From: Henricia sp. BOLD:AAB3569
Taxonomy: Eukaryota; Echinodermata; Asteroidea; Spinulosida; Echinasteridae
Assembly: GCA_037783545.1 (NCBI GenBank)
Contig: JBBELK010000329.1
Location: 248,001 to 312,000 of the forward strand
Direction of reading: 5' to 3'
DNA: 64,000 bases
The notes below the pieces were generated by a model. The model saw nothing but the letters and a program-made list of their open reading frames with translations. It was not told the DNA's origin and did not search any database. Below are positions 2,667 to 37,180 of this stretch, piece by piece. Every line of letters starts with the position of its first letter. Position 1 is the first letter of the stretch. The position numbers and the translations under genes were made by a program.

Positions 2667-2669
2667 CTA
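2592..2669 (+). repeat. 78-bp direct repeat, copy 2, abutting the array
   Basis: This matches 2250-2327. Its last three bases (CTA) overlap the first bases of array unit 1, so the array boundary falls exactly at the end of this repeat. That suggests the duplicated sequence took part in the rearrangement that joined the array to its left flank. Confidence 0.9.
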
Positions 2670-2776
2670 GACCACACTCGTGCAGCTCGCAACTCTCTCT
2701 AATATAGAAGTATTTGAGGGCATACAAGATATTCACGAGCTCGGCGCACGGGTCTCTGCCTATTTACACAGTCGAG

Positions 2777-2848
2777 TCCCATATGGTCTAGTGGTTAGGA
2801 TCCGGCGCTCTCACCGCCGTGGCCCGGGTTCAATTCCCGGTGTGGGAA
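2777..2848 (+). tRNA. tRNA-Glu-CTC: tRNA-Glu (CTC), unit 1
   Basis: All cloverleaf parts can be placed. The 7-bp acceptor stem TCCCATA/TGTGGGA has one G-T pair, followed by discriminator A. The D arm is GTCT-AGTGGTTA-GGAT. The 5-bp anticodon stem CGGCG/CGCCG closes the loop CTCTCAC with anticodon CTC at positions 34-36. The variable loop is TGGC, and the T arm is CCGGG-TTCAATT-CCCGG. The length is 72 nt, as usual for eukaryotic tRNA-Glu, and the body closely follows the vertebrate tRNA-Glu-CTC pattern. The A box (TGGTCTAGTGG) and B box (GGTTCAATTCC) are intact. There is no intron and no encoded CCA; a normal eukaryotic end is added after transcription. This is the consensus form of the array. 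Confidence 0.97.
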
Positions 2849-2941
2849 GTCGTTGATCAGCAGCAGCAAAGATTCCTCTGCAAGCTACTGGCAAAACACT
2901 GCGAGGAAACGTCTGTCGTGTCTTTGAAAAATTGGTAAATC

Positions 2942-2946
2942 TTTTT
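2942..2946 (+). terminator. candidate Pol III terminator T5, distal (unit 1; repeated in every unit)
   Basis: This is the first run of four or more T after the tRNA, and 93 nt separate it from the tRNA 3' end. Most eukaryotic tRNA genes have such a run within about 10-25 nt. A second T5 lies at 2987-2991. The same spacing holds in the other units apart from unit 17. Confidence 0.5.
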
Positions 2947-3350
2947 GTCTCGCGACAACAACCCAATTACTCATTGAAGTCTCATCTTTTTAGTTCTGTT
3001 CAATTTTATGTGGCTGATCCGTCACTTGTATTCCATAATTTCCACTTGAAACAAAACTACCCCAGCCTGCAGCTGCAAGAGTGAAAATTGCCAAACAGCA
3101 GACCAGCGTCTATTTTGGGAAACGAAAGTCACATACGCTACTGAGCAAACTAGGGCCTCTTTTCCGAGCTAGATAGATTGTTCAAAATGTTTGCGGTTGC
3201 AAGAAAATACCCCACATCACGATGGTGGCCTATTTCTACACTAGACCACACTCGTGCAGCTCGCAACTCTCTCTAATATAGAAGTATTTGAGGGCATACA
3301 AGATATTCACGAGCTCGGCGCACGGGTCTCTGCCTATTTACACAGTCGAG

Positions 3351-3422
3351 TCCCATATGGTCTAGTGGTTAGGATCCGGCGCTCTCACCGCCGTGGCCCG
3401 GGTTCAATTCCCGGTGTGGGAA
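3351..3422 (+). tRNA. tRNA-Glu-CTC: tRNA-Glu (CTC), unit 2
   Basis: Consensus tRNA. The spacer has a private A-to-C change (ATTGGTCAAT) just before the distal T5 run. Confidence 0.96.
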
Positions 3423-3924
3423 GTCGTTGATCAGCAGCAGCAAAGATTCCTCTGCAAGCTACTGGCAAAACACTGCGAGGAAACGTCTGTCGTGTCTTTG
3501 AAAAATTGGTCAATCTTTTTGTCTCGCGACAACAACCCAATTACTCATTGAAGTCTCATCTTTTTAGTTCTGTTCAATTTTATGTGGCTGATCCGTCACT
3601 TGTATTCCATAATTTCCACTTGAAACAAAACTACCCCAGCCTGCAGCTGCAAGAGTGAAAATTGCCAAACAGCAGACCAGCGTCTATTTTGGGAAACGAA
3701 AGTCACATACGCTACTGAGCAAACTAGGGCCTCTTTTCCGAGCTAGATAGATTGTTCAAAATGTTTGCGGTTGCAAGAAAATACCCCACATCACGATGGT
3801 GGCCTATTTCTACACTAGACCACACTCGTGCAGCTCGCAACTCTCTCTAATATAGAAGTATTTGAGGGCATACAAGATATTCACGAGCTCGGCGCACGGG
3901 TCTCTGCCTATTTACACAGTCGAG

Positions 3925-3996
3925 TCCCATATGGTCTAGTGGTTAGGATCCGGCGCTCTCACCGCCGTGGCCCGGGTTCAATTCCCGGTGTGGGAA
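3925..3996 (+). tRNA. tRNA-Glu-CTC: tRNA-Glu (CTC), unit 3
   Basis: Consensus tRNA. The downstream spacer carries the CAGTAG variant (consensus CAGCAG). Confidence 0.96.
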
Positions 3997-4498
3997 GTCG
4001 TTGATCAGCAGCAGCAAAGATTCCTCTGCAAGCTACTGGCAAAACACTGCGAGGAAACGTCTGTCGTGTCTTTGAAAAATTGGTAAATCTTTTTGTCTCG
4101 CGACAACAACCCAATTACTCATTGAAGTCTCATCTTTTTAGTTCTGTTCAATTTTATGTGGCTGATCCGTCACTTGTATTCCATAATTTCCACTTGAAAC
4201 AAAACTACCCCAGCCTGCAGCTGCAAGAGTGAAAATTGCCAAACAGTAGACCAGCGTCTATTTTGGGAAACGAAAGTCACATACGCTACTGAGCAAACTA
4301 GGGCCTCTTTTCCGAGCTAGATAGATTGTTCAAAATGTTTGCGGTTGCAAGAAAATACCCCACATCACGATGGTGGCCTATTTCTACACTAGACCACACT
4401 CGTGCAGCTCGCAACTCTCTCTAATATAGAAGTATTTGAGGGCATACAAGATATTCACGAGCTCGGCGCACGGGTCTCTGCCTATTTACACAGTCGAG

Positions 4499-4570
4499 TC
4501 CCATATGGTCTAGTGGTTAGGATCCGGCGCTCTCACCGCCGTGGCCCGGGTTCAATTCCCGGTGTGGGAA
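4499..4570 (+). tRNA. tRNA-Glu-CTC: tRNA-Glu (CTC), unit 4
   Basis: Consensus tRNA and consensus spacer. Confidence 0.96.
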
Positions 4571-5072
4571 GTCGTTGATCAGCAGCAGCAAAGATTCCTC
4601 TGCAAGCTACTGGCAAAACACTGCGAGGAAACGTCTGTCGTGTCTTTGAAAAATTGGTAAATCTTTTTGTCTCGCGACAACAACCCAATTACTCATTGAA
4701 GTCTCATCTTTTTAGTTCTGTTCAATTTTATGTGGCTGATCCGTCACTTGTATTCCATAATTTCCACTTGAAACAAAACTACCCCAGCCTGCAGCTGCAA
4801 GAGTGAAAATTGCCAAACAGCAGACCAGCGTCTATTTTGGGAAACGAAAGTCACATACGCTACTGAGCAAACTAGGGCCTCTTTTCCGAGCTAGATAGAT
4901 TGTTCAAAATGTTTGCGGTTGCAAGAAAATACCCCACATCACGATGGTGGCCTATTTCTACACTAGACCACACTCGTGCAGCTCGCAACTCTCTCTAATA
5001 TAGAAGTATTTGAGGGCATACAAGATATTCACGAGCTCGGCGCACGGGTCTCTGCCTATTTACACAGTCGAG

Positions 5073-5144
5073 TCCCATATGGTCTAGTGGTTATGATCCG
5101 GCGCTCTCACCGCCGTGGCCCGGGTTCAATTCCCGGTGTGGGAA
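5073..5144 (+). tRNA. tRNA-Glu-CTC: tRNA-Glu (CTC), unit 5, D-stem variant
   Basis: G22 is T (TTATGATCC instead of TTAGGATCC), turning the T13-G22 wobble pair of the D stem into T-T. The spacer has GAAAAAAAAC in place of GAAACAAAAC, the same pair of variants as unit 10. The gene may still function but is weakened. Confidence 0.9.
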
Positions 5145-5646
5145 GTCGTTGATCAGCAGCAGCAAAGATTCCTCTGCAAGCTACTGGCAAAACACTGCGA
5201 GGAAACGTCTGTCGTGTCTTTGAAAAATTGGTAAATCTTTTTGTCTCGCGACAACAACCCAATTACTCATTGAAGTCTCATCTTTTTAGTTCTGTTCAAT
5301 TTTATGTGGCTGATCCGTCACTTGTATTCCATAATTTCCACTTGAAAAAAAACTACCCCAGCCTGCAGCTGCAAGAGTGAAAATTGCCAAACAGCAGACC
5401 AGCGTCTATTTTGGGAAACGAAAGTCACATACGCTACTGAGCAAACTAGGGCCTCTTTTCCGAGCTAGATAGATTGTTCAAAATGTTTGCGGTTGCAAGA
5501 AAATACCCCACATCACGATGGTGGCCTATTTCTACACTAGACCACACTCGTGCAGCTCGCAACTCTCTCTAATATAGAAGTATTTGAGGGCATACAAGAT
5601 ATTCACGAGCTCGGCGCACGGGTCTCTGCCTATTTACACAGTCGAG

Positions 5647-5718
5647 TCCCATATGGTCTAGTGGTTAGGATCCGGCGCTCTCACCGCCGTGGCCCGGGTT
5701 CAATTCCCGGTGTGGGAA
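5647..5718 (+). tRNA. tRNA-Glu-CTC: tRNA-Glu (CTC), unit 6
   Basis: Consensus tRNA and spacer. Confidence 0.96.
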
Positions 5719-6220
5719 GTCGTTGATCAGCAGCAGCAAAGATTCCTCTGCAAGCTACTGGCAAAACACTGCGAGGAAACGTCTGTCGTGTCTTTGAAAA
5801 ATTGGTAAATCTTTTTGTCTCGCGACAACAACCCAATTACTCATTGAAGTCTCATCTTTTTAGTTCTGTTCAATTTTATGTGGCTGATCCGTCACTTGTA
5901 TTCCATAATTTCCACTTGAAACAAAACTACCCCAGCCTGCAGCTGCAAGAGTGAAAATTGCCAAACAGCAGACCAGCGTCTATTTTGGGAAACGAAAGTC
6001 ACATACGCTACTGAGCAAACTAGGGCCTCTTTTCCGAGCTAGATAGATTGTTCAAAATGTTTGCGGTTGCAAGAAAATACCCCACATCACGATGGTGGCC
6101 TATTTCTACACTAGACCACACTCGTGCAGCTCGCAACTCTCTCTAATATAGAAGTATTTGAGGGCATACAAGATATTCACGAGCTCGGCGCACGGGTCTC
6201 TGCCTATTTACACAGTCGAG

Positions 6221-6292
6221 TCCCATATGGTCTAGTGGTTAGGATCCGGCGCTCTCACCGCCGTGGCCCGGGTTCAATTCCCGGTGTGGGAA
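6221..6292 (+). tRNA. tRNA-Glu-CTC: tRNA-Glu (CTC), unit 7
   Basis: Consensus tRNA. The spacer has CAGTAG and the 3-bp TAG insertion near the unit end (GGCTAGCTAT), making the unit 577 bp. Confidence 0.96.
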
Positions 6293-6797
6293 GTCGTTGA
6301 TCAGCAGCAGCAAAGATTCCTCTGCAAGCTACTGGCAAAACACTGCGAGGAAACGTCTGTCGTGTCTTTGAAAAATTGGTAAATCTTTTTGTCTCGCGAC
6401 AACAACCCAATTACTCATTGAAGTCTCATCTTTTTAGTTCTGTTCAATTTTATGTGGCTGATCCGTCACTTGTATTCCATAATTTCCACTTGAAACAAAA
6501 CTACCCCAGCCTGCAGCTGCAAGAGTGAAAATTGCCAAACAGTAGACCAGCGTCTATTTTGGGAAACGAAAGTCACATACGCTACTGAGCAAACTAGGGC
6601 CTCTTTTCCGAGCTAGATAGATTGTTCAAAATGTTTGCGGTTGCAAGAAAATACCCCACATCACGATGGTGGCTAGCTATTTCTACACTAGACCACACTC
6701 GTGCAGCTCGCAACTCTCTCTAATATAGAAGTATTTGAGGGCATACAAGATATTCACGAGCTCGGCGCACGGGTCTCTGCCTATTTACACAGTCGAG

Positions 6798-6869
6798 TCC
6801 CATATGGTCTAGTGGTTATGATCCGGCGCTCTCACCGCCGTGGCCCGGGTTCAATTCCCGGTGTGGGAA
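6798..6869 (+). tRNA. tRNA-Glu-CTC: tRNA-Glu (CTC), unit 8, D-stem variant
   Basis: G22-to-T D-stem variant. The trailer has GATTCTTCTGC, and the spacer contains the 62-bp duplication at 7127-7250, giving a 636-bp unit. Confidence 0.9.
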
Positions 6870-7126
6870 GTCGTTGATCAGCAGCAGCAAAGATTCTTCT
6901 GCAAGCTACTGGCAAAACACTGCGAGGAAACGTCTGTCGTGTCTTTGAAAAATTGGTAAATCTTTTTGTCTCGCGACAACAACCCAATTACTCATTGAAG
7001 TCTCATCTTTTTAGTTCTGTTCAATTTTATGTGGCTGATCCGTCACTTGTATTCCATAATTTCCACTTGAAACAAAACTACCCCAGCCTGCAGCTGCAAG
7101 AGTGAAAATTGCCAAACAGCAGACCA

Positions 7127-7250
7127 GCGTCTATTTTGGGAAACGAAAGTCACATACGCTACTGAGCAAACTAGGGCCTCTTTTCCGAGCGTCTATTTTG
7201 GGAAACGAAAGTCACATACGCTACTGAGCAAACTAGGGCCTCTTTTCCGA
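7127..7250 (+). repeat. 62-bp tandem duplication inside unit 8
   Basis: Bases 7127-7188 repeat at once as 7189-7250, starting GCGTCTATTTTGGG. It is the only unit with this and probably arose by slippage between GAGC and CAGC edges. It makes a natural marker for this unit. Confidence 0.95.
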
Positions 7251-7433
7251 GCTAGATAGATTGTTCAAAATGTTTGCGGTTGCAAGAAAATACCCCACAT
7301 CACGATGGTGGCCTATTTCTACACTAGACCACACTCGTGCAGCTCGCAACTCTCTCTAATATAGAAGTATTTGAGGGCATACAAGATATTCACGAGCTCG
7401 GCGCACGGGTCTCTGCCTATTTACACAGTCGAG

Positions 7434-7505
7434 TCCCATATGGTCTAGTGGTTAGGATCCGGCGCTCTCACCGCCGTGGCCCGGGTTCAATTCCCGGTGT
7501 GGGAA
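7434..7505 (+). tRNA. tRNA-Glu-CTC: tRNA-Glu (CTC), unit 9
   Basis: Consensus tRNA and spacer. Confidence 0.96.
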
Positions 7506-8007
7506 GTCGTTGATCAGCAGCAGCAAAGATTCCTCTGCAAGCTACTGGCAAAACACTGCGAGGAAACGTCTGTCGTGTCTTTGAAAAATTGGTAAATCTT
7601 TTTGTCTCGCGACAACAACCCAATTACTCATTGAAGTCTCATCTTTTTAGTTCTGTTCAATTTTATGTGGCTGATCCGTCACTTGTATTCCATAATTTCC
7701 ACTTGAAACAAAACTACCCCAGCCTGCAGCTGCAAGAGTGAAAATTGCCAAACAGCAGACCAGCGTCTATTTTGGGAAACGAAAGTCACATACGCTACTG
7801 AGCAAACTAGGGCCTCTTTTCCGAGCTAGATAGATTGTTCAAAATGTTTGCGGTTGCAAGAAAATACCCCACATCACGATGGTGGCCTATTTCTACACTA
7901 GACCACACTCGTGCAGCTCGCAACTCTCTCTAATATAGAAGTATTTGAGGGCATACAAGATATTCACGAGCTCGGCGCACGGGTCTCTGCCTATTTACAC
8001 AGTCGAG

Positions 8008-8079
8008 TCCCATATGGTCTAGTGGTTATGATCCGGCGCTCTCACCGCCGTGGCCCGGGTTCAATTCCCGGTGTGGGAA
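8008..8079 (+). tRNA. tRNA-Glu-CTC: tRNA-Glu (CTC), unit 10, D-stem variant
   Basis: G22-to-T variant with the GAAAAAAAAC spacer change; it looks like a duplicate of unit 5. Confidence 0.9.
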
Positions 8080-8581
8080 GTCGTTGATCAGCAGCAGCAA
8101 AGATTCCTCTGCAAGCTACTGGCAAAACACTGCGAGGAAACGTCTGTCGTGTCTTTGAAAAATTGGTAAATCTTTTTGTCTCGCGACAACAACCCAATTA
8201 CTCATTGAAGTCTCATCTTTTTAGTTCTGTTCAATTTTATGTGGCTGATCCGTCACTTGTATTCCATAATTTCCACTTGAAAAAAAACTACCCCAGCCTG
8301 CAGCTGCAAGAGTGAAAATTGCCAAACAGCAGACCAGCGTCTATTTTGGGAAACGAAAGTCACATACGCTACTGAGCAAACTAGGGCCTCTTTTCCGAGC
8401 TAGATAGATTGTTCAAAATGTTTGCGGTTGCAAGAAAATACCCCACATCACGATGGTGGCCTATTTCTACACTAGACCACACTCGTGCAGCTCGCAACTC
8501 TCTCTAATATAGAAGTATTTGAGGGCATACAAGATATTCACGAGCTCGGCGCACGGGTCTCTGCCTATTTACACAGTCGAG

Positions 8582-8653
8582 TCCCATATGGTCTAGTGGT
8601 TAGGATCCGGCGCTCTCACCGCCGTGGCCCGGGTTCAATTCCCGGTGTGGGAA
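8582..8653 (+). tRNA. tRNA-Glu-CTC: tRNA-Glu (CTC), unit 11
   Basis: Consensus tRNA and spacer. Confidence 0.96.
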
Positions 8654-9155
8654 GTCGTTGATCAGCAGCAGCAAAGATTCCTCTGCAAGCTACTGGCAAA
8701 ACACTGCGAGGAAACGTCTGTCGTGTCTTTGAAAAATTGGTAAATCTTTTTGTCTCGCGACAACAACCCAATTACTCATTGAAGTCTCATCTTTTTAGTT
8801 CTGTTCAATTTTATGTGGCTGATCCGTCACTTGTATTCCATAATTTCCACTTGAAACAAAACTACCCCAGCCTGCAGCTGCAAGAGTGAAAATTGCCAAA
8901 CAGCAGACCAGCGTCTATTTTGGGAAACGAAAGTCACATACGCTACTGAGCAAACTAGGGCCTCTTTTCCGAGCTAGATAGATTGTTCAAAATGTTTGCG
9001 GTTGCAAGAAAATACCCCACATCACGATGGTGGCCTATTTCTACACTAGACCACACTCGTGCAGCTCGCAACTCTCTCTAATATAGAAGTATTTGAGGGC
9101 ATACAAGATATTCACGAGCTCGGCGCACGGGTCTCTGCCTATTTACACAGTCGAG

Positions 9156-9227
9156 TCCCATATGGTCTAGTGGTTAGGATCCGGCGCTCTCACCGCCGTG
9201 GCCCGGGTTCAATTCCCGGTGTGGGAA
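9156..9227 (+). tRNA. tRNA-Glu-CTC: tRNA-Glu (CTC), unit 12
   Basis: Consensus tRNA; CAGTAG spacer variant, five units after unit 7. Confidence 0.96.
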
Positions 9228-9729
9228 GTCGTTGATCAGCAGCAGCAAAGATTCCTCTGCAAGCTACTGGCAAAACACTGCGAGGAAACGTCTGTCGTGT
9301 CTTTGAAAAATTGGTAAATCTTTTTGTCTCGCGACAACAACCCAATTACTCATTGAAGTCTCATCTTTTTAGTTCTGTTCAATTTTATGTGGCTGATCCG
9401 TCACTTGTATTCCATAATTTCCACTTGAAACAAAACTACCCCAGCCTGCAGCTGCAAGAGTGAAAATTGCCAAACAGTAGACCAGCGTCTATTTTGGGAA
9501 ACGAAAGTCACATACGCTACTGAGCAAACTAGGGCCTCTTTTCCGAGCTAGATAGATTGTTCAAAATGTTTGCGGTTGCAAGAAAATACCCCACATCACG
9601 ATGGTGGCCTATTTCTACACTAGACCACACTCGTGCAGCTCGCAACTCTCTCTAATATAGAAGTATTTGAGGGCATACAAGATATTCACGAGCTCGGCGC
9701 ACGGGTCTCTGCCTATTTACACAGTCGAG

Positions 9730-9801
9730 TCCCATATGGTCTAGTGGTTAGGATCCGGCGCTCTCACCGCCGTGGCCCGGGTTCAATTCCCGGTGTGGGA
9801 A
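9730..9801 (+). tRNA. tRNA-Glu-CTC: tRNA-Glu (CTC), unit 13
   Basis: Consensus tRNA and spacer. Confidence 0.96.
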
Positions 9802-10303
9802 GTCGTTGATCAGCAGCAGCAAAGATTCCTCTGCAAGCTACTGGCAAAACACTGCGAGGAAACGTCTGTCGTGTCTTTGAAAAATTGGTAAATCTTTTTG
9901 TCTCGCGACAACAACCCAATTACTCATTGAAGTCTCATCTTTTTAGTTCTGTTCAATTTTATGTGGCTGATCCGTCACTTGTATTCCATAATTTCCACTT
10001 GAAACAAAACTACCCCAGCCTGCAGCTGCAAGAGTGAAAATTGCCAAACAGCAGACCAGCGTCTATTTTGGGAAACGAAAGTCACATACGCTACTGAGCA
10101 AACTAGGGCCTCTTTTCCGAGCTAGATAGATTGTTCAAAATGTTTGCGGTTGCAAGAAAATACCCCACATCACGATGGTGGCCTATTTCTACACTAGACC
10201 ACACTCGTGCAGCTCGCAACTCTCTCTAATATAGAAGTATTTGAGGGCATACAAGATATTCACGAGCTCGGCGCACGGGTCTCTGCCTATTTACACAGTC
10301 GAG

Positions 10304-10375
10304 TCCCATATGGTCTAGTGGTTAGGATCCGGCGCTCTCACCGCCGTGGCCCGGGTTCAATTCCCGGTGTGGGAA
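10304..10375 (+). tRNA. tRNA-Glu-CTC: tRNA-Glu (CTC), unit 14
   Basis: Consensus tRNA; spacer variant CAGAAG, shared only with unit 18. Confidence 0.96.
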
Positions 10376-10877
10376 GTCGTTGATCAGCAGCAGCAAAGAT
10401 TCCTCTGCAAGCTACTGGCAAAACACTGCGAGGAAACGTCTGTCGTGTCTTTGAAAAATTGGTAAATCTTTTTGTCTCGCGACAACAACCCAATTACTCA
10501 TTGAAGTCTCATCTTTTTAGTTCTGTTCAATTTTATGTGGCTGATCCGTCACTTGTATTCCATAATTTCCACTTGAAACAAAACTACCCCAGCCTGCAGC
10601 TGCAAGAGTGAAAATTGCCAAACAGAAGACCAGCGTCTATTTTGGGAAACGAAAGTCACATACGCTACTGAGCAAACTAGGGCCTCTTTTCCGAGCTAGA
10701 TAGATTGTTCAAAATGTTTGCGGTTGCAAGAAAATACCCCACATCACGATGGTGGCCTATTTCTACACTAGACCACACTCGTGCAGCTCGCAACTCTCTC
10801 TAATATAGAAGTATTTGAGGGCATACAAGATATTCACGAGCTCGGCGCACGGGTCTCTGCCTATTTACACAGTCGAG

Positions 10878-10949
10878 TCCCATATGGTCTAGTGGTTAGG
10901 ATCCGGCGCTCTCACCGCCGTGGCCCGGGTTCAATTCCCGGTGTGGGAA
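10878..10949 (+). tRNA. tRNA-Glu-CTC: tRNA-Glu (CTC), unit 15
   Basis: Consensus tRNA; spacer has CCATGATTT and the TAG insertion (577 bp), as in unit 19. Confidence 0.96.
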
Positions 10950-11454
10950 GTCGTTGATCAGCAGCAGCAAAGATTCCTCTGCAAGCTACTGGCAAAACAC
11001 TGCGAGGAAACGTCTGTCGTGTCTTTGAAAAATTGGTAAATCTTTTTGTCTCGCGACAACAACCCAATTACTCATTGAAGTCTCATCTTTTTAGTTCTGT
11101 TCAATTTTATGTGGCTGATCCGTCACTTGTATTCCATGATTTCCACTTGAAACAAAACTACCCCAGCCTGCAGCTGCAAGAGTGAAAATTGCCAAACAGC
11201 AGACCAGCGTCTATTTTGGGAAACGAAAGTCACATACGCTACTGAGCAAACTAGGGCCTCTTTTCCGAGCTAGATAGATTGTTCAAAATGTTTGCGGTTG
11301 CAAGAAAATACCCCACATCACGATGGTGGCTAGCTATTTCTACACTAGACCACACTCGTGCAGCTCGCAACTCTCTCTAATATAGAAGTATTTGAGGGCA
11401 TACAAGATATTCACGAGCTCGGCGCACGGGTCTCTGCCTATTTACACAGTCGAG

Positions 11455-11526
11455 TCCCATATGGTCTAGTGGTTAGGATCCGGCGCTCTCACCGCCGTGG
11501 CCCGGGTTCAATTCCCGGTGTGGGAA
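11455..11526 (+). tRNA. tRNA-Glu-CTC: tRNA-Glu (CTC), unit 16
   Basis: Consensus tRNA; TAG insertion at the unit end (577 bp). Confidence 0.96.
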
Positions 11527-12031
11527 GTCGTTGATCAGCAGCAGCAAAGATTCCTCTGCAAGCTACTGGCAAAACACTGCGAGGAAACGTCTGTCGTGTC
11601 TTTGAAAAATTGGTAAATCTTTTTGTCTCGCGACAACAACCCAATTACTCATTGAAGTCTCATCTTTTTAGTTCTGTTCAATTTTATGTGGCTGATCCGT
11701 CACTTGTATTCCATAATTTCCACTTGAAACAAAACTACCCCAGCCTGCAGCTGCAAGAGTGAAAATTGCCAAACAGCAGACCAGCGTCTATTTTGGGAAA
11801 CGAAAGTCACATACGCTACTGAGCAAACTAGGGCCTCTTTTCCGAGCTAGATAGATTGTTCAAAATGTTTGCGGTTGCAAGAAAATACCCCACATCACGA
11901 TGGTGGCTAGCTATTTCTACACTAGACCACACTCGTGCAGCTCGCAACTCTCTCTAATATAGAAGTATTTGAGGGCATACAAGATATTCACGAGCTCGGC
12001 GCACGGGTCTCTGCCTATTTACACAGTCGAG

Positions 12032-12103
12032 TCCCATATGGTCTAGTGGTTATGATCCGGCGCTCTCACCGCCGTGGCCCGGGTTCAATTCCCGGTGTGG
12101 GAA
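12032..12103 (+). tRNA. tRNA-Glu-CTC: tRNA-Glu (CTC), unit 17, D-stem variant with near terminator
   Basis: G22-to-T variant. The trailer reads GATTCTTTTGC, two changes from GATTCCTCTGC, which creates a T4 run 27 nt after the tRNA. The unit end has GGCCTACTT instead of GGCCTATTT. Confidence 0.9.
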
Positions 12104-12130
12104 GTCGTTGATCAGCAGCAGCAAAGATTC

Positions 12131-12134
12131 TTTT
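12131..12134 (+). terminator. private near Pol III terminator (T4) of unit 17
   Basis: TTTT lies 27 nt beyond the tRNA 3' end, at a normal distance for Pol III termination. It is found only in this unit, and units 8 and 20 show the half-way form CTTCTG. Confidence 0.5.
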
Positions 12135-27532: not shown

Positions 27533-27604
27533 TCCCATATGGTCTAGTGGTTAGGATCCGGCGCTCTCACCGCCGTGGCCCGGGTTCAATTCCCGGTGTG
27601 GGAA
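27533..27604 (+). tRNA. tRNA-Glu-CTC: tRNA-Glu (CTC), unit 44
   Basis: Consensus tRNA; CAGTAG marker, partner of unit 33. Confidence 0.96.
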
Positions 27605-28106
27605 GTCGTTGATCAGCAGCAGCAAAGATTCCTCTGCAAGCTACTGGCAAAACACTGCGAGGAAACGTCTGTCGTGTCTTTGAAAAATTGGTAAATCTTT
27701 TTGTCTCGCGACAACAACCCAATTACTCATTGAAGTCTCATCTTTTTAGTTCTGTTCAATTTTATGTGGCTGATCCGTCACTTGTATTCCATAATTTCCA
27801 CTTGAAACAAAACTACCCCAGCCTGCAGCTGCAAGAGTGAAAATTGCCAAACAGTAGACCAGCGTCTATTTTGGGAAACGAAAGTCACATACGCTACTGA
27901 GCAAACTAGGGCCTCTTTTCCGAGCTAGATAGATTGTTCAAAATGTTTGCGGTTGCAAGAAAATACCCCACATCACGATGGTGGCCTATTTCTACACTAG
28001 ACCACACTCGTGCAGCTCGCAACTCTCTCTAATATAGAAGTATTTGAGGGCATACAAGATATTCACGAGCTCGGCGCACGGGTCTCTGCCTATTTACACA
28101 GTCGAG

Positions 28107-28178
28107 TCCCATATGGTCTAGTGGTTAGGATCCGGCGCTCTCACCGCCGTGGCCCGGGTTCAATTCCCGGTGTGGGAA
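28107..28178 (+). tRNA. tRNA-Glu-CTC: tRNA-Glu (CTC), unit 45
   Basis: Consensus tRNA and spacer. Confidence 0.96.
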
Positions 28179-28680
28179 GTCGTTGATCAGCAGCAGCAAA
28201 GATTCCTCTGCAAGCTACTGGCAAAACACTGCGAGGAAACGTCTGTCGTGTCTTTGAAAAATTGGTAAATCTTTTTGTCTCGCGACAACAACCCAATTAC
28301 TCATTGAAGTCTCATCTTTTTAGTTCTGTTCAATTTTATGTGGCTGATCCGTCACTTGTATTCCATAATTTCCACTTGAAACAAAACTACCCCAGCCTGC
28401 AGCTGCAAGAGTGAAAATTGCCAAACAGCAGACCAGCGTCTATTTTGGGAAACGAAAGTCACATACGCTACTGAGCAAACTAGGGCCTCTTTTCCGAGCT
28501 AGATAGATTGTTCAAAATGTTTGCGGTTGCAAGAAAATACCCCACATCACGATGGTGGCCTATTTCTACACTAGACCACACTCGTGCAGCTCGCAACTCT
28601 CTCTAATATAGAAGTATTTGAGGGCATACAAGATATTCACGAGCTCGGCGCACGGGTCTCTGCCTATTTACACAGTCGAG

Positions 28681-28752
28681 TCCCATATGGTCTAGTGGTT
28701 AGGATCCGGCGCTCTCACCGCCGTGGCCCGGGTTCAATTCCCGGTGTGGGAA
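28681..28752 (+). tRNA. tRNA-Glu-CTC: tRNA-Glu (CTC), unit 46
   Basis: Consensus tRNA and spacer. Confidence 0.96.
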
Positions 28753-29254
28753 GTCGTTGATCAGCAGCAGCAAAGATTCCTCTGCAAGCTACTGGCAAAA
28801 CACTGCGAGGAAACGTCTGTCGTGTCTTTGAAAAATTGGTAAATCTTTTTGTCTCGCGACAACAACCCAATTACTCATTGAAGTCTCATCTTTTTAGTTC
28901 TGTTCAATTTTATGTGGCTGATCCGTCACTTGTATTCCATAATTTCCACTTGAAACAAAACTACCCCAGCCTGCAGCTGCAAGAGTGAAAATTGCCAAAC
29001 AGCAGACCAGCGTCTATTTTGGGAAACGAAAGTCACATACGCTACTGAGCAAACTAGGGCCTCTTTTCCGAGCTAGATAGATTGTTCAAAATGTTTGCGG
29101 TTGCAAGAAAATACCCCACATCACGATGGTGGCCTATTTCTACACTAGACCACACTCGTGCAGCTCGCAACTCTCTCTAATATAGAAGTATTTGAGGGCA
29201 TACAAGATATTCACGAGCTCGGCGCACGGGTCTCTGCCTATTTACACAGTCGAG

Positions 29255-29326
29255 TCCCATATGGTCTAGTGGTTAGGATCCGGCGCTCTCACCGCCGTGG
29301 CCCGGGTTCAATTCCCGGTGTGGGAA
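29255..29326 (+). tRNA. tRNA-Glu-CTC: tRNA-Glu (CTC), unit 47
   Basis: Consensus tRNA; CAGTAG marker, partner of unit 36. Confidence 0.96.
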
Positions 29327-29828
29327 GTCGTTGATCAGCAGCAGCAAAGATTCCTCTGCAAGCTACTGGCAAAACACTGCGAGGAAACGTCTGTCGTGTC
29401 TTTGAAAAATTGGTAAATCTTTTTGTCTCGCGACAACAACCCAATTACTCATTGAAGTCTCATCTTTTTAGTTCTGTTCAATTTTATGTGGCTGATCCGT
29501 CACTTGTATTCCATAATTTCCACTTGAAACAAAACTACCCCAGCCTGCAGCTGCAAGAGTGAAAATTGCCAAACAGTAGACCAGCGTCTATTTTGGGAAA
29601 CGAAAGTCACATACGCTACTGAGCAAACTAGGGCCTCTTTTCCGAGCTAGATAGATTGTTCAAAATGTTTGCGGTTGCAAGAAAATACCCCACATCACGA
29701 TGGTGGCCTATTTCTACACTAGACCACACTCGTGCAGCTCGCAACTCTCTCTAATATAGAAGTATTTGAGGGCATACAAGATATTCACGAGCTCGGCGCA
29801 CGGGTCTCTGCCTATTTACACAGTCGAG

Positions 29829-29900
29829 TCCCATATGGTCTAGTGGTTAGGATCCGGCGCTCTCACCGCCGTGGCCCGGGTTCAATTCCCGGTGTGGGAA
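29829..29900 (+). tRNA. tRNA-Glu-CTC: tRNA-Glu (CTC), unit 48
   Basis: Consensus tRNA and spacer. Confidence 0.96.
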
Positions 29901-30402
29901 GTCGTTGATCAGCAGCAGCAAAGATTCCTCTGCAAGCTACTGGCAAAACACTGCGAGGAAACGTCTGTCGTGTCTTTGAAAAATTGGTAAATCTTTTTGT
30001 CTCGCGACAACAACCCAATTACTCATTGAAGTCTCATCTTTTTAGTTCTGTTCAATTTTATGTGGCTGATCCGTCACTTGTATTCCATAATTTCCACTTG
30101 AAACAAAACTACCCCAGCCTGCAGCTGCAAGAGTGAAAATTGCCAAACAGCAGACCAGCGTCTATTTTGGGAAACGAAAGTCACATACGCTACTGAGCAA
30201 ACTAGGGCCTCTTTTCCGAGCTAGATAGATTGTTCAAAATGTTTGCGGTTGCAAGAAAATACCCCACATCACGATGGTGGCCTATTTCTACACTAGACCA
30301 CACTCGTGCAGCTCGCAACTCTCTCTAATATAGAAGTATTTGAGGGCATACAAGATATTCACGAGCTCGGCGCACGGGTCTCTGCCTATTTACACAGTCG
30401 AG

Positions 30403-30474
30403 TCCCATATGGTCTAGTGGTTAGGATCCGGCGCTCTCACCGCCGTGGCCCGGGTTCAATTCCCGGTGTGGGAA
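30403..30474 (+). tRNA. tRNA-Glu-CTC: tRNA-Glu (CTC), unit 49
   Basis: Consensus tRNA and spacer. Confidence 0.96.
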
Positions 30475-30976
30475 GTCGTTGATCAGCAGCAGCAAAGATT
30501 CCTCTGCAAGCTACTGGCAAAACACTGCGAGGAAACGTCTGTCGTGTCTTTGAAAAATTGGTAAATCTTTTTGTCTCGCGACAACAACCCAATTACTCAT
30601 TGAAGTCTCATCTTTTTAGTTCTGTTCAATTTTATGTGGCTGATCCGTCACTTGTATTCCATAATTTCCACTTGAAACAAAACTACCCCAGCCTGCAGCT
30701 GCAAGAGTGAAAATTGCCAAACAGCAGACCAGCGTCTATTTTGGGAAACGAAAGTCACATACGCTACTGAGCAAACTAGGGCCTCTTTTCCGAGCTAGAT
30801 AGATTGTTCAAAATGTTTGCGGTTGCAAGAAAATACCCCACATCACGATGGTGGCCTATTTCTACACTAGACCACACTCGTGCAGCTCGCAACTCTCTCT
30901 AATATAGAAGTATTTGAGGGCATACAAGATATTCACGAGCTCGGCGCACGGGTCTCTGCCTATTTACACAGTCGAG

Positions 30977-31048
30977 TCCCATATGGTCTAGTGGTTAGGA
31001 TCCGGCGCTCTCACCGCCGTGGCCCGGGTTCAATTCCCGGTGTGGGAA
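30977..31048 (+). tRNA. tRNA-Glu-CTC: tRNA-Glu (CTC), unit 50
   Basis: Consensus tRNA; GAACCAAAAC/GCCAGAC markers (partner of unit 39) plus a private GTCTCTCGAC after the T5 run. Confidence 0.96.
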
Positions 31049-31550
31049 GTCGTTGATCAGCAGCAGCAAAGATTCCTCTGCAAGCTACTGGCAAAACACT
31101 GCGAGGAAACGTCTGTCGTGTCTTTGAAAAATTGGTAAATCTTTTTGTCTCTCGACAACAACCCAATTACTCATTGAAGTCTCATCTTTTTAGTTCTGTT
31201 CAATTTTATGTGGCTGATCCGTCACTTGTATTCCATAATTTCCACTTGAACCAAAACTACCCCAGCCTGCAGCTGCAAGAGTGAAAATTGCCAGACAGCA
31301 GACCAGCGTCTATTTTGGGAAACGAAAGTCACATACGCTACTGAGCAAACTAGGGCCTCTTTTCCGAGCTAGATAGATTGTTCAAAATGTTTGCGGTTGC
31401 AAGAAAATACCCCACATCACGATGGTGGCCTATTTCTACACTAGACCACACTCGTGCAGCTCGCAACTCTCTCTAATATAGAAGTATTTGAGGGCATACA
31501 AGATATTCACGAGCTCGGCGCACGGGTCTCTGCCTATTTACACAGTCGAG

Positions 31551-31622
31551 TCCCATATGGTCTAGTGGTTAGGATCCGGCGCTCTCACCGCCGTGGCCCG
31601 GGTTCAATTCCCGGTGTGGGAA
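31551..31622 (+). tRNA. tRNA-Glu-CTC: tRNA-Glu (CTC), unit 51
   Basis: Consensus tRNA; CAGTAG marker, partner of unit 40. Confidence 0.96.
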
Positions 31623-32124
31623 GTCGTTGATCAGCAGCAGCAAAGATTCCTCTGCAAGCTACTGGCAAAACACTGCGAGGAAACGTCTGTCGTGTCTTTG
31701 AAAAATTGGTAAATCTTTTTGTCTCGCGACAACAACCCAATTACTCATTGAAGTCTCATCTTTTTAGTTCTGTTCAATTTTATGTGGCTGATCCGTCACT
31801 TGTATTCCATAATTTCCACTTGAAACAAAACTACCCCAGCCTGCAGCTGCAAGAGTGAAAATTGCCAAACAGTAGACCAGCGTCTATTTTGGGAAACGAA
31901 AGTCACATACGCTACTGAGCAAACTAGGGCCTCTTTTCCGAGCTAGATAGATTGTTCAAAATGTTTGCGGTTGCAAGAAAATACCCCACATCACGATGGT
32001 GGCCTATTTCTACACTAGACCACACTCGTGCAGCTCGCAACTCTCTCTAATATAGAAGTATTTGAGGGCATACAAGATATTCACGAGCTCGGCGCACGGG
32101 TCTCTGCCTATTTACACAGTCGAG

Positions 32125-32196
32125 TCCCATATGGTCTAGTGGTTAGGATCCGGCGCTCTCACCGCCGTGGCCCGGGTTCAATTCCCGGTGTGGGAA
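32125..32196 (+). tRNA. tRNA-Glu-CTC: tRNA-Glu (CTC), unit 52
   Basis: Consensus tRNA and spacer; opens the three-unit rhythm that runs to unit 60. Confidence 0.96.
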
Positions 32197-32698
32197 GTCG
32201 TTGATCAGCAGCAGCAAAGATTCCTCTGCAAGCTACTGGCAAAACACTGCGAGGAAACGTCTGTCGTGTCTTTGAAAAATTGGTAAATCTTTTTGTCTCG
32301 CGACAACAACCCAATTACTCATTGAAGTCTCATCTTTTTAGTTCTGTTCAATTTTATGTGGCTGATCCGTCACTTGTATTCCATAATTTCCACTTGAAAC
32401 AAAACTACCCCAGCCTGCAGCTGCAAGAGTGAAAATTGCCAAACAGCAGACCAGCGTCTATTTTGGGAAACGAAAGTCACATACGCTACTGAGCAAACTA
32501 GGGCCTCTTTTCCGAGCTAGATAGATTGTTCAAAATGTTTGCGGTTGCAAGAAAATACCCCACATCACGATGGTGGCCTATTTCTACACTAGACCACACT
32601 CGTGCAGCTCGCAACTCTCTCTAATATAGAAGTATTTGAGGGCATACAAGATATTCACGAGCTCGGCGCACGGGTCTCTGCCTATTTACACAGTCGAG

Positions 32699-32770
32699 TC
32701 CCATATGGTCTAGTGGTTAGGATCCGGCGCTCTCACCGCCGTGGCCCGGGTTCAATTCCCGGTGTGGGAA
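32699..32770 (+). tRNA. tRNA-Glu-CTC: tRNA-Glu (CTC), unit 53
   Basis: Consensus tRNA and spacer. Confidence 0.96.
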
Positions 32771-33272
32771 GTCGTTGATCAGCAGCAGCAAAGATTCCTC
32801 TGCAAGCTACTGGCAAAACACTGCGAGGAAACGTCTGTCGTGTCTTTGAAAAATTGGTAAATCTTTTTGTCTCGCGACAACAACCCAATTACTCATTGAA
32901 GTCTCATCTTTTTAGTTCTGTTCAATTTTATGTGGCTGATCCGTCACTTGTATTCCATAATTTCCACTTGAAACAAAACTACCCCAGCCTGCAGCTGCAA
33001 GAGTGAAAATTGCCAAACAGCAGACCAGCGTCTATTTTGGGAAACGAAAGTCACATACGCTACTGAGCAAACTAGGGCCTCTTTTCCGAGCTAGATAGAT
33101 TGTTCAAAATGTTTGCGGTTGCAAGAAAATACCCCACATCACGATGGTGGCCTATTTCTACACTAGACCACACTCGTGCAGCTCGCAACTCTCTCTAATA
33201 TAGAAGTATTTGAGGGCATACAAGATATTCACGAGCTCGGCGCACGGGTCTCTGCCTATTTACACAGTCGAG

Positions 33273-33344
33273 TCCCATATGGTCTAGTGGTTAGGATCCG
33301 GCGCTCTCACCGCCGTGGCCCGGGTTCAATTCCCGGTGTGGGAA
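33273..33344 (+). tRNA. tRNA-Glu-CTC: tRNA-Glu (CTC), unit 54
   Basis: Consensus tRNA; GAACCAAAAC/GCCAGAC markers. Confidence 0.96.
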
Positions 33345-33846
33345 GTCGTTGATCAGCAGCAGCAAAGATTCCTCTGCAAGCTACTGGCAAAACACTGCGA
33401 GGAAACGTCTGTCGTGTCTTTGAAAAATTGGTAAATCTTTTTGTCTCGCGACAACAACCCAATTACTCATTGAAGTCTCATCTTTTTAGTTCTGTTCAAT
33501 TTTATGTGGCTGATCCGTCACTTGTATTCCATAATTTCCACTTGAACCAAAACTACCCCAGCCTGCAGCTGCAAGAGTGAAAATTGCCAGACAGCAGACC
33601 AGCGTCTATTTTGGGAAACGAAAGTCACATACGCTACTGAGCAAACTAGGGCCTCTTTTCCGAGCTAGATAGATTGTTCAAAATGTTTGCGGTTGCAAGA
33701 AAATACCCCACATCACGATGGTGGCCTATTTCTACACTAGACCACACTCGTGCAGCTCGCAACTCTCTCTAATATAGAAGTATTTGAGGGCATACAAGAT
33801 ATTCACGAGCTCGGCGCACGGGTCTCTGCCTATTTACACAGTCGAG

Positions 33847-33918
33847 TCCCATATGGTCTAGTGGTTAGGATCCGGCGCTCTCACCGCCGTGGCCCGGGTT
33901 CAATTCCCGGTGTGGGAA
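33847..33918 (+). tRNA. tRNA-Glu-CTC: tRNA-Glu (CTC), unit 55
   Basis: Consensus tRNA and spacer. Confidence 0.96.
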
Positions 33919-34420
33919 GTCGTTGATCAGCAGCAGCAAAGATTCCTCTGCAAGCTACTGGCAAAACACTGCGAGGAAACGTCTGTCGTGTCTTTGAAAA
34001 ATTGGTAAATCTTTTTGTCTCGCGACAACAACCCAATTACTCATTGAAGTCTCATCTTTTTAGTTCTGTTCAATTTTATGTGGCTGATCCGTCACTTGTA
34101 TTCCATAATTTCCACTTGAAACAAAACTACCCCAGCCTGCAGCTGCAAGAGTGAAAATTGCCAAACAGCAGACCAGCGTCTATTTTGGGAAACGAAAGTC
34201 ACATACGCTACTGAGCAAACTAGGGCCTCTTTTCCGAGCTAGATAGATTGTTCAAAATGTTTGCGGTTGCAAGAAAATACCCCACATCACGATGGTGGCC
34301 TATTTCTACACTAGACCACACTCGTGCAGCTCGCAACTCTCTCTAATATAGAAGTATTTGAGGGCATACAAGATATTCACGAGCTCGGCGCACGGGTCTC
34401 TGCCTATTTACACAGTCGAG

Positions 34421-34492
34421 TCCCATATGGTCTAGTGGTTAGGATCCGGCGCTCTCACCGCCGTGGCCCGGGTTCAATTCCCGGTGTGGGAA
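34421..34492 (+). tRNA. tRNA-Glu-CTC: tRNA-Glu (CTC), unit 56
   Basis: Consensus tRNA and spacer. Confidence 0.96.
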
Positions 34493-34994
34493 GTCGTTGA
34501 TCAGCAGCAGCAAAGATTCCTCTGCAAGCTACTGGCAAAACACTGCGAGGAAACGTCTGTCGTGTCTTTGAAAAATTGGTAAATCTTTTTGTCTCGCGAC
34601 AACAACCCAATTACTCATTGAAGTCTCATCTTTTTAGTTCTGTTCAATTTTATGTGGCTGATCCGTCACTTGTATTCCATAATTTCCACTTGAAACAAAA
34701 CTACCCCAGCCTGCAGCTGCAAGAGTGAAAATTGCCAAACAGCAGACCAGCGTCTATTTTGGGAAACGAAAGTCACATACGCTACTGAGCAAACTAGGGC
34801 CTCTTTTCCGAGCTAGATAGATTGTTCAAAATGTTTGCGGTTGCAAGAAAATACCCCACATCACGATGGTGGCCTATTTCTACACTAGACCACACTCGTG
34901 CAGCTCGCAACTCTCTCTAATATAGAAGTATTTGAGGGCATACAAGATATTCACGAGCTCGGCGCACGGGTCTCTGCCTATTTACACAGTCGAG

Positions 34995-35066
34995 TCCCAT
35001 ATGGTCTAGTGGTTAGGATCCGGCGCTCTCACCGCCGTGGCCCGGGTTCAATTCCCGGTGTGGGAA
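34995..35066 (+). tRNA. tRNA-Glu-CTC: tRNA-Glu (CTC), unit 57
   Basis: Consensus tRNA; GAACCAAAAC/GCCAGAC markers, three units after unit 54. Confidence 0.96.
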
Positions 35067-35568
35067 GTCGTTGATCAGCAGCAGCAAAGATTCCTCTGCA
35101 AGCTACTGGCAAAACACTGCGAGGAAACGTCTGTCGTGTCTTTGAAAAATTGGTAAATCTTTTTGTCTCGCGACAACAACCCAATTACTCATTGAAGTCT
35201 CATCTTTTTAGTTCTGTTCAATTTTATGTGGCTGATCCGTCACTTGTATTCCATAATTTCCACTTGAACCAAAACTACCCCAGCCTGCAGCTGCAAGAGT
35301 GAAAATTGCCAGACAGCAGACCAGCGTCTATTTTGGGAAACGAAAGTCACATACGCTACTGAGCAAACTAGGGCCTCTTTTCCGAGCTAGATAGATTGTT
35401 CAAAATGTTTGCGGTTGCAAGAAAATACCCCACATCACGATGGTGGCCTATTTCTACACTAGACCACACTCGTGCAGCTCGCAACTCTCTCTAATATAGA
35501 AGTATTTGAGGGCATACAAGATATTCACGAGCTCGGCGCACGGGTCTCTGCCTATTTACACAGTCGAG

Positions 35569-35640
35569 TCCCATATGGTCTAGTGGTTAGGATCCGGCGC
35601 TCTCACCGCCGTGGCCCGGGTTCAATTCCCGGTGTGGGAA
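35569..35640 (+). tRNA. tRNA-Glu-CTC: tRNA-Glu (CTC), unit 58
   Basis: Consensus tRNA and spacer. Confidence 0.96.
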
Positions 35641-36142
35641 GTCGTTGATCAGCAGCAGCAAAGATTCCTCTGCAAGCTACTGGCAAAACACTGCGAGGAA
35701 ACGTCTGTCGTGTCTTTGAAAAATTGGTAAATCTTTTTGTCTCGCGACAACAACCCAATTACTCATTGAAGTCTCATCTTTTTAGTTCTGTTCAATTTTA
35801 TGTGGCTGATCCGTCACTTGTATTCCATAATTTCCACTTGAAACAAAACTACCCCAGCCTGCAGCTGCAAGAGTGAAAATTGCCAAACAGCAGACCAGCG
35901 TCTATTTTGGGAAACGAAAGTCACATACGCTACTGAGCAAACTAGGGCCTCTTTTCCGAGCTAGATAGATTGTTCAAAATGTTTGCGGTTGCAAGAAAAT
36001 ACCCCACATCACGATGGTGGCCTATTTCTACACTAGACCACACTCGTGCAGCTCGCAACTCTCTCTAATATAGAAGTATTTGAGGGCATACAAGATATTC
36101 ACGAGCTCGGCGCACGGGTCTCTGCCTATTTACACAGTCGAG

Positions 36143-36214
36143 TCCCATATGGTCTAGTGGTTAGGATCCGGCGCTCTCACCGCCGTGGCCCGGGTTCAAT
36201 TCCCGGTGTGGGAA
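36143..36214 (+). tRNA. tRNA-Glu-CTC: tRNA-Glu (CTC), unit 59
   Basis: Consensus tRNA and spacer. Confidence 0.96.
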
Positions 36215-36716
36215 GTCGTTGATCAGCAGCAGCAAAGATTCCTCTGCAAGCTACTGGCAAAACACTGCGAGGAAACGTCTGTCGTGTCTTTGAAAAATTG
36301 GTAAATCTTTTTGTCTCGCGACAACAACCCAATTACTCATTGAAGTCTCATCTTTTTAGTTCTGTTCAATTTTATGTGGCTGATCCGTCACTTGTATTCC
36401 ATAATTTCCACTTGAAACAAAACTACCCCAGCCTGCAGCTGCAAGAGTGAAAATTGCCAAACAGCAGACCAGCGTCTATTTTGGGAAACGAAAGTCACAT
36501 ACGCTACTGAGCAAACTAGGGCCTCTTTTCCGAGCTAGATAGATTGTTCAAAATGTTTGCGGTTGCAAGAAAATACCCCACATCACGATGGTGGCCTATT
36601 TCTACACTAGACCACACTCGTGCAGCTCGCAACTCTCTCTAATATAGAAGTATTTGAGGGCATACAAGATATTCACGAGCTCGGCGCACGGGTCTCTGCC
36701 TATTTACACAGTCGAG

Positions 36717-36788
36717 TCCCATATGGTCTAGTGGTTAGGATCCGGCGCTCTCACCGCCGTGGCCCGGGTTCAATTCCCGGTGTGGGAA
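36717..36788 (+). tRNA. tRNA-Glu-CTC: tRNA-Glu (CTC), unit 60
   Basis: Consensus tRNA; CAGTAG marker. Last tRNA of the array. Confidence 0.96.
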
Positions 36789-37180
36789 GTCGTTGATCAG
36801 CAGCAGCAAAGATTCCTCTGCAAGCTACTGGCAAAACACTGCGAGGAAACGTCTGTCGTGTCTTTGAAAAATTGGTAAATCTTTTTGTCTCGCGACAACA
36901 ACCCAATTACTCATTGAAGTCTCATCTTTTTAGTTCTGTTCAATTTTATGTGGCTGATCCGTCACTTGTATTCCATAATTTCCACTTGAAACAAAACTAC
37001 CCCAGCCTGCAGCTGCAAGAGTGAAAATTGCCAAACAGTAGACCAGCGTCTATTTTGGGAAACGAAAGTCACATACGCTACTGAGCAAACTAGGGCCTCT
37101 TTTCCGAGCTAGATAGATTGTTCAAAATGTTTGCGGTTGCAAGAAAATACCCCACATCACGATGGTGGCCTATTTCTACA

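What the first reader, a model, noticed from the sequence alone, without database searches (positions are those of the whole stretch)
2667..37180. Sixty head-to-tail tRNA-Glu(CTC) genes in one 574-bp tandem array
One isoacceptor is repeated 60 times in the same orientation with near-identical spacers, an organisation more like 5S rDNA than ordinary dispersed tRNA genes. The tRNA is canonical in every stem and both promoter boxes, so most copies could be active. This could be a dosage reservoir for tRNA-Glu, a source of tRNA fragments, a chromatin boundary or insulator block, or a silenced satellite born from a tRNA gene.
Basis: partly seen in the sequence, partly recalled or inferred. Interest (0 to 1): 0.85.

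Follow-up and report, generated by a model that had tools for sequence, protein, structure and literature searches.

The report
Giant single-locus tandem tRNA-Glu gene array
The 60 repeated tRNA-Glu genes are real, but they are only one end of a roughly 200-kb array of about 300 copies that looks like a satellite born from a tRNA gene, while at least three ordinary, well-kept tRNA-Glu genes sit elsewhere in the genome.

Summary
Confirmed: 60 of 60 tRNA-Glu(CTC) genes at window 2777-36788, all +, mostly 574 bp apart. The window shows only the right-hand end. In the window's own genome (740.7 Mb, unnamed) the array spans about 200 kb on contig C329 and 221 kb on C326; their borders match at 99.0-99.4%, so probably two alleles of one locus. 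Genome-wide 651 copies have at most 3 mismatches, 3 of them dispersed.

The 3 dispersed Glu-CTC genes are identical to each other and have T4+ at +10 to +12. Array genes differ from them at one base (A for G, in box B); their first T4 run is at +94 in 147 of 153 scored copies. In sampled units tRNA and spacer vary equally by substitution (0.0032 v 0.0035 per site).

Best reading: a tRNA-born, satellite-like array whose copies are competent but not individually maintained; routine Glu-CTC comes mainly from dispersed genes. Expression was not testable. The apparent left edge is a Ngaro-type insertion with split direct repeats. Homogeneous tRNA arrays are known (Nippostrongylus, Arabidopsis): new member of a known kind.

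The parts
2667..37286 (+). Tandem array block: 60 head-to-tail units, each a tRNA-Glu(CTC) gene plus about 500 bp spacer; right-hand end of a ~200-kb array on contig C329
   Evidence: larger array
2777..2848 (+). First tRNA-Glu(CTC) gene of the block (the last is 36717-36788); 55 of 60 identical, 5 of 60 with G22T
2849..2946 (+). Downstream of the first gene: no run of four or more T until TTTTT at +94 (2942-2946); the same distance in 147 of 153 scored copies in the window and 20 loci
7126..7252 (+). 62-bp tandem duplication inside one spacer, giving the single 636-bp unit
37181..37286 (+). Diverged partial unit at the right border; the same border is found on contig C326
1..2669 (+). Right-hand part of a ~10.4-kb Ngaro-type insertion (C329 240,238-250,669) that interrupts the array
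   Evidence: ALOG-domain match at about 1016-1210; weak PDB match of the 1-402 ORF, E 0.0024
2250..2327 (+). Split direct repeat B1 of the insertion, identical to B2 (78 of 78)
2324..2387 (+). Split direct repeat A2, identical to A1 at the far end of the insertion (64 of 64; L013 239-302)
2592..2669 (+). Split direct repeat B2, abutting the array at the same nucleotide of the unit where the far side stops

Best explanation
This is one end of a single-locus, length-variable tandem array of about 300 or more units, each a competent tRNA-Glu(CTC) gene plus about 500 bp of spacer. SHOWN: head-to-tail near-identical units; block duplications inside the array; two contigs with the same borders and different array lengths; three dispersed, mutually identical Glu-CTC genes with close T-runs; array genes set apart from these by one fixed base and a distant first T-run; equal substitution load in tRNA and spacer of sampled units. 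INFERRED: a dispersed Glu-CTC gene or its ancestor was copied next to new sequence without a close terminator, then amplified and homogenised by unequal exchange and block duplication, as satellites are. Any one copy is dispensable, so damaged copies build up. Routine Glu-CTC supply rests mainly on dispersed genes; the array is silent, weakly active or active only under some condition. If Pol III does transcribe it, the precursor would carry a 3' trailer of about 95 nt ending at the T5 run.
For: 60 of 60 genes and 574-bp period; block repeat PAACAACAA at an 11-unit lag and two 9.5-kb stretches of C326, 32 kb apart, 99.989% identical; same borders on C326 and C329; 651 genome-wide copies at up to 3 mismatches, control 0; three dispersed genes identical 72 of 72, first T4+ at +11, +10, +12; array first T4 at +94 in 147 of 153; substitutions per site 0.0032 in tRNA v 0.0035 in spacer over the window and 18 loci; invariant U8 hit by A, G and C in different copies; exact adjacent 50-mers genome-wide: tRNA 535, trailer 595.
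Against: 125 of 154 examined copies still carry the exact consensus tRNA, and array and dispersed genes score alike in Rfam (59.4 bits), so most copies could work. Gap letters are rarer in the tRNA than in the spacer (5 v 102 over the sampled units), though most of the 102 are a repeated 3-letter insertion. In the oldest-looking stretch (L009) the tRNA has fewer substitutions than the spacer (0.0087 v 0.0134). With hundreds of active copies selection on each would be weak anyway, so equal variability does not prove inactivity. A distant T-run is not a bar to transcription; read-through is common (PMC5356446 passages). CpG is not strongly depleted.
Confidence: 0.6

Rival explanations
1. A working dosage array: hundreds of Glu-CTC genes are switched on in one stage or tissue with extreme demand, as for Xenopus oocyte-specific tandem tRNA arrays or the Arabidopsis SYY cluster in the root cap.
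For: Most copies are intact and canonical. Precedents exist: oocyte-specific tandem tRNA arrays (PMC11500080 passages) and the SYY cluster, silent in most tissues but active in root-cap cells (PMC12308677 abstract). Singleton variants are denser in the tRNA than in the spacer (0.194 v 0.082 per site, binomial p 0.007), which could reflect transcription-linked mutation (recalled idea).
Against: No substitution-level constraint on the tRNA in sampled copies, no kept close terminator, and dispersed genes exist. No expression data.
Confidence: 0.25
2. A chromatin boundary or insulator block made of many TFIIIC sites.
For: Box B sites repeated hundreds of times; barrier activity of tRNA genes is reported for the mouse counterpart of the human 1q23.3 repeat (PMC4041453 passages).
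Against: Nothing in the window ties the array to neighbouring genes; Pfam found no host gene in the flanks scanned. Not tested directly.
Confidence: 0.05
3. A source of small RNAs: the array is kept for its tRNA fragments or its ~95-nt trailer.
For: The first T4 run is at +94 in 147 of 153 scored copies, which would give a long trailer.
Against: Rfam at E up to 10 on two units gave the tRNA and otherwise only weak hits below gathering scores. A 93-nt stretch without T4 arises in 67% of shuffled spacers.
Confidence: 0.04
4. An assembly artefact that multiplies a few real units.
For: Very high identity between blocks and a 9.2-kb near-perfect duplication in the same window.
Against: Two contigs have the same borders but different interiors. 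18 unit types in the window, unit forms of 574, 577, 636 and 711 bp, and two nested insertions differing from each other are not what a simple collapse or loop would give.
Confidence: 0.04

Closest known systems
Nippostrongylus brasiliensis very long complex tandem repeats of tRNA genes (PMC5765664, passages seen)
   Same: Homogeneous tandem arrays of one tRNA gene in an animal: close to 150 copies of a ~200-bp tRNA-Trp repeat and 90 copies of tRNA-Ser with an 80-bp spacer
   Different: Here tRNA-Glu(CTC), a 574-bp unit, about 300 copies per allele by estimate, with element insertions inside
Arabidopsis SYY cluster (PMC12308677, abstract and section on cluster structure read)
   Same: Clustered and dispersed gene classes distinguishable by sequence; expansion by tandem duplication; variants and pseudogenes in the cluster
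   Different: SYY mixes Ser and Tyr genes; its expression and methylation are known, none is known here
Human 1q23.3 tDNA repeat (PMC4041453, passages seen)
   Same: Length-variable tandem array of tRNA genes
   Different: 7.3-kb units with five tRNA genes each and CTCF binding; 9-43 units per allele
Entamoeba tRNA arrays (PMC2652664, abstract seen)
   Same: tRNA genes in tandem arrays of near-uniform units
   Different: There almost all tRNA genes are arrayed, with up to 5 genes per unit and short tandem repeats between genes
Large tDNA clusters of Nematostella and teleosts (PMC2888827, passages seen)
   Same: Clusters with fifty or more tRNA genes
   Different: The passages do not describe a 574-bp single-gene unit of this kind
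Ngaro-like retrotransposons (PMC9210276 and PMC4157794, passages seen), for the insertion only
   Same: Split direct repeats A1 ... B1-A2-B2 with A1=A2 and B1=B2
   Different: No reverse transcriptase found by Pfam in the + frames examined; two copies sit at the same nucleotide of the tRNA unit

Membership tests
Homogeneous tandem tRNA array (Nippostrongylus type) | Many head-to-tail near-identical units carrying one tRNA species | tested here: met
   60 of 60 Glu-CTC, one strand, 99.74% identity; continues on both contigs
Homogeneous tandem tRNA array (Nippostrongylus type) | Copy number confirmed in reads | not testable with these tools
   No reads available; only the assembly
SYY-type redundant cluster | Clustered genes differ in sequence from the dispersed genes | tested here: met
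   One fixed base between the array consensus and 3 of 3 dispersed genes found
SYY-type redundant cluster | Damaged or minor variants within the cluster, more so in flanking regions | tested here: inconclusive
   29 of 154 examined copies differ from the consensus; the stretch near the C326 left border (L009) is the most variable sampled, but sampling was uneven
SYY-type redundant cluster | Silenced in most tissues, reactivated in a few | not testable with these tools
   No expression or methylation data
tRNA-derived SINE | Copies dispersed by retroposition with a tRNA-unrelated tail | tested here: not met
   No unit copy in the window's flanks; the three dispersed genes share only the tRNA with the unit, not the spacer. 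The remaining reverse-strand copies were not located
Human 1q23.3-type tDNA repeat | Multi-gene kilobase unit | tested here: not met
   One tRNA gene per 574-bp unit
Human 1q23.3-type tDNA repeat | CTCF binding in each unit | not tested
   No motif scan or binding data used
Entamoeba-type array | Almost all tRNA genes of the genome are arrayed | not tested
   Other isoacceptors were not surveyed; three Glu-CTC genes at least are dispersed
Ngaro-like element (the insertion) | Split direct repeats A1 ... B1-A2-B2 | tested here: met
   A1=A2 64 of 64, B1=B2 78 of 78, in that order
Ngaro-like element (the insertion) | Reverse transcriptase and tyrosine recombinase coding regions | tested here: inconclusive
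   No Pfam hit in 3 of 3 + frames of L013 (- frames not scanned). One ALOG-domain match, E 2e-8, in window 1-2660; its kinship to tyrosine recombinases is recalled

The most novel reading that the evidence does not exclude
The array is a specialised reserve of a distinct Glu-CTC isodecoder (A57, long trailer), switched on only in one stage or tissue. It is also a recurrent landing site for a Ngaro-type element that inserts at one exact nucleotide of the tRNA unit, as R2 elements do in rDNA (comparison recalled). Two insertions at the same nucleotide of the unit are seen on C329; duplication of one insertion along with the array is not excluded.
Probability: 0.15. Interest if true: 0.65.

Novelty: new member of a known kind. 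Interest (0 to 1): 0.42.

Why it matters
The locus offers a natural test of how a tRNA gene turns into a satellite. Dispersed, well-kept genes and an arrayed class share one genome and are told apart by a single base (A57 v G57) that tRNA sequencing can in principle read, so the question whether giant tRNA arrays are used or only tolerated becomes directly answerable. It also warns that tRNA gene counts, and codon-supply models built on them, can be far off where such arrays exist.

Tried and rejected
The 60 copies as the size of the array: rejected; the array continues beyond the insertion and on a second contig. Two independent loci on C326 and C329: not favoured, because both borders match at 99.0-99.4%; but the three dispersed genes show no such pairing, so the assembly is not generally diploid and a near-identical segmental duplication remains possible. 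SINE origin: no dispersed unit copies where looked for. A second RNA gene in the spacer: Rfam at E up to 10 on two units gave the tRNA and, otherwise, hits below gathering scores with E 0.36 or more. Host genes in the flanks: Pfam found nothing in six frames of 37246-46000 and 45601-54900 and nothing in the + frames of the next 9.5 kb, and only the ALOG match in six frames of 1-2660. Plasmid collection searched with the unit: no match. Literature: ten searches; none of the listings named a tRNA-Glu array of this form, but listings were capped in several and most subscription papers are not held. The organism was not identified; that the tRNA looks animal-like is recall only.

Left undone because the genome machine stopped answering: genome-wide places of the inserted element; array-type genes with a close terminator outside the array; places of most of the 22 reverse-strand copies; a survey of other isoacceptors; repeat B1 and most of A2 of the second insertion.
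Full report
WHAT IS THERE. The window holds 60 tRNA-Glu(CTC) genes, all on the + strand, each an Rfam tRNA match (60 of 60). The 72-nt gene is the same in 55 of 60; 5 of 60 have G22T, which by my hand numbering breaks the 13-22 pair. Spacing is 574 bp in 54 of 59 cases, 577 in four and 636 in one. The 60 units form 18 types with mean pairwise identity 99.74% by substitutions. A run of nine unit types (PAACAACAA) occurs twice at an 11-unit lag, the mark of block duplication; two 9.5-kb stretches of the array on C326, 32 kb apart, are 99.989% identical.

THE ARRAY IS MUCH LARGER. The window is contig C329:248001-312000 of a 740,731,340-base genome in 2104 contigs. The same unit is found on C329 from 85,110 to about 285,286 and on C326 from 1,712,281 to about 1,933,027. 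This rests on borders and samples, not on complete sequence. C329 has two insertions, at about 97,627-108,304 and 240,238-250,669; C326 has at least one break, at about 1,918,586. If there are no further interruptions, C329 holds about 179 kb or 312 units (my arithmetic) and C326 at most about 384. Genome-wide the 72-nt gene with at most 3 mismatches occurs 651 times (629 forward, 22 reverse; reversed-pattern control 0). Copies with indels are not counted there.

PROBABLY ONE LOCUS, TWO LENGTHS. The left borders of C326 and C329 are 99.41% identical over 1698 bp, about 510 bp of it outside the array, and begin with inverted units. At the right, C326 matches window 36701-37736 at 99.04% over 1042 columns, about 450 bp of it outside the array. 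A sample 72 kb left of the C326 array matches C329 about 82 kb left of its array at 99.2-99.6%. The simplest reading is two alleles kept as separate contigs. Against it, the three dispersed genes do not come in such pairs, so a near-identical segmental duplication is not excluded.

THE APPARENT LEFT EDGE IS AN INSERTION. A 78-bp direct repeat lies at window 2250-2327 and 2592-2669 (78 of 78). A 64-bp stretch at 2324-2387 is identical to the far end of the insertion (64 of 64). This is the A1 ... B1-A2-B2 layout described for Ngaro-like and PAT-like elements (passages of PMC9210276 and PMC4157794). The two junctions share CTA and the uninterrupted unit reads through it, so no target-site duplication is seen. 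Protein evidence is thin: one ALOG-domain match, a weak structure-database match of the first ORF (E 0.0024), and no Pfam hit in the three + frames of the rest. A second copy on C329 sits at the same nucleotide of the unit. Over 592 columns from their left ends the two copies are 95.8% identical, with 6 mismatches and 4 gap openings; in the 25 bases of A2 seen for the second copy, A1 and A2 differ at one. Independent insertion and duplication of one insertion cannot be told apart from this.

ORDINARY GLU-CTC GENES EXIST. A pattern for Glu tRNAs (CTC or TTC) with the usual GTTCGA arm found 3 genes, on C93, C132 and C298, all CTC. They are identical to each other and differ from the array consensus only at gene position 56, canonical 57 by my numbering (array A, dispersed G). 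Compared with the array unit, only the tRNA itself matches at these loci; among themselves similarity beyond the gene is limited to some tens of bases of T-rich trailer and a few short stretches at 77-90%. Their first T4+ runs are at +11, +10 and +12. Array genes have their first T4 run at +94 in 147 of 153 scored copies (154 found); 3 are at +83, 2 at +139 and 1 at +28. Four T residues suffice for human Pol III, and read-through of terminators is common (PMC5356446 passages). The pattern covers one arm sequence only; other Glu genes may exist.

LITTLE SIGN OF COPY-LEVEL SELECTION ON THE ARRAY tRNA. Over the window and 18 loci the tRNA has 0.0032 substitutions per site per copy against 0.0035 in the spacer; distinct variant alleles per site are 0.264 against 0.169 and singletons 0.194 against 0.082 (binomial p 0.10 and 0.007). 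Locus by locus the picture is mixed: in L009 the tRNA varies less than the spacer (0.0087 v 0.0134), in L033 more (0.0054 v 0.0021). Gap letters are fewer in the tRNA (5 v 102), but by my count at least 84 of the 102 belong to units with the same three-letter gap. Copies are related and L010 and L011 are near-duplicates, so the tests are rough. Changes include the invariant U8 (A, G and C in different copies) and the T-arm. In five loci chosen because they held variants, 16 of 39 Rfam-matched array copies score below the consensus, the worst 29.2 bits. Even so, 125 of 154 examined copies carry the exact consensus. Genome-wide, the exact 50-nt 3' part of the tRNA occurs 535 times and the exact 50 nt next to it 595 times. 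Only these two 50-mers were compared, and units of 711 bp repeat part of the trailer, which could add to the second count; in two such units checked in the listing it did not.

HOW IT MOST LIKELY WORKS. The array behaves as a satellite that carries a good tRNA gene: amplified by blocks, homogenised, length-variable, tolerant of broken copies and of element insertions. Cells probably depend mainly on the dispersed genes. This is inference: hundreds of good copies could also serve a special tissue, and the denser singletons in the tRNA might reflect transcription-linked mutation (recalled idea, not read here).

COMPARISON. Homogeneous tRNA arrays are known: close to 150 tRNA-Trp and 90 tRNA-Ser repeats in Nippostrongylus (PMC5765664 passages); Arabidopsis Pro and SYY clusters (PMC11700998 passages; PMC12308677 abstract and one section); the human 1q23.3 repeat (PMC4041453 passages); Entamoeba (PMC2652664 abstract); clusters of fifty and more in Nematostella and fishes (PMC2888827 passages); oocyte-specific tandem tRNA arrays in Xenopus (PMC11500080 passages). 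SYY is closest in logic, with clustered and dispersed classes distinct in sequence. The present case differs in isoacceptor, unit, size and the nested Ngaro-type insertions. Verdict: new member of a known kind. None of the listings of the ten paper searches named this array.

Noticed in passing
window 45602-54766 and 54836-64000: A 9.2-kb direct duplication, 99.978% identical over 9165 bp: very recent, or an assembly duplication.
   Followed up: no
window 38550-41021 and 44087-44890: Nested long inverted repeats (arms up to 379 nt, 96-100% complementary), probably foldback-type mobile elements.
   Followed up: no
window 49211-49486 and 58445-58720: A 22-bp tandem repeat, 12.5 copies at 98% match, present in both copies of the 9.2-kb duplication.
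   Followed up: no
C329 97,627-108,304 (L064, L040, L041) and window 1-2669: Two related Ngaro-type insertions at the same nucleotide of the 574-bp unit: a possible array-targeting element. The genome-wide test did not complete.
   Followed up: partly
L009 (C326:1713500-1723300) and C329 87,578-96,661: A 711-bp unit form in the left part of both contigs' arrays; in L009 it is consensus 1-283 followed by 145-574, a partial internal duplication.
   Followed up: partly
L065 511-1447 and L066 1282-2218: The left border of the array on both contigs begins with more than one unit in inverted orientation.
   Followed up: partly
L010 and L011 (C326, 32 kb apart): Two 9.5-kb stretches of the array are 99.989% identical, suggesting a very recent block duplication of tens of kilobases.
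   Followed up: no
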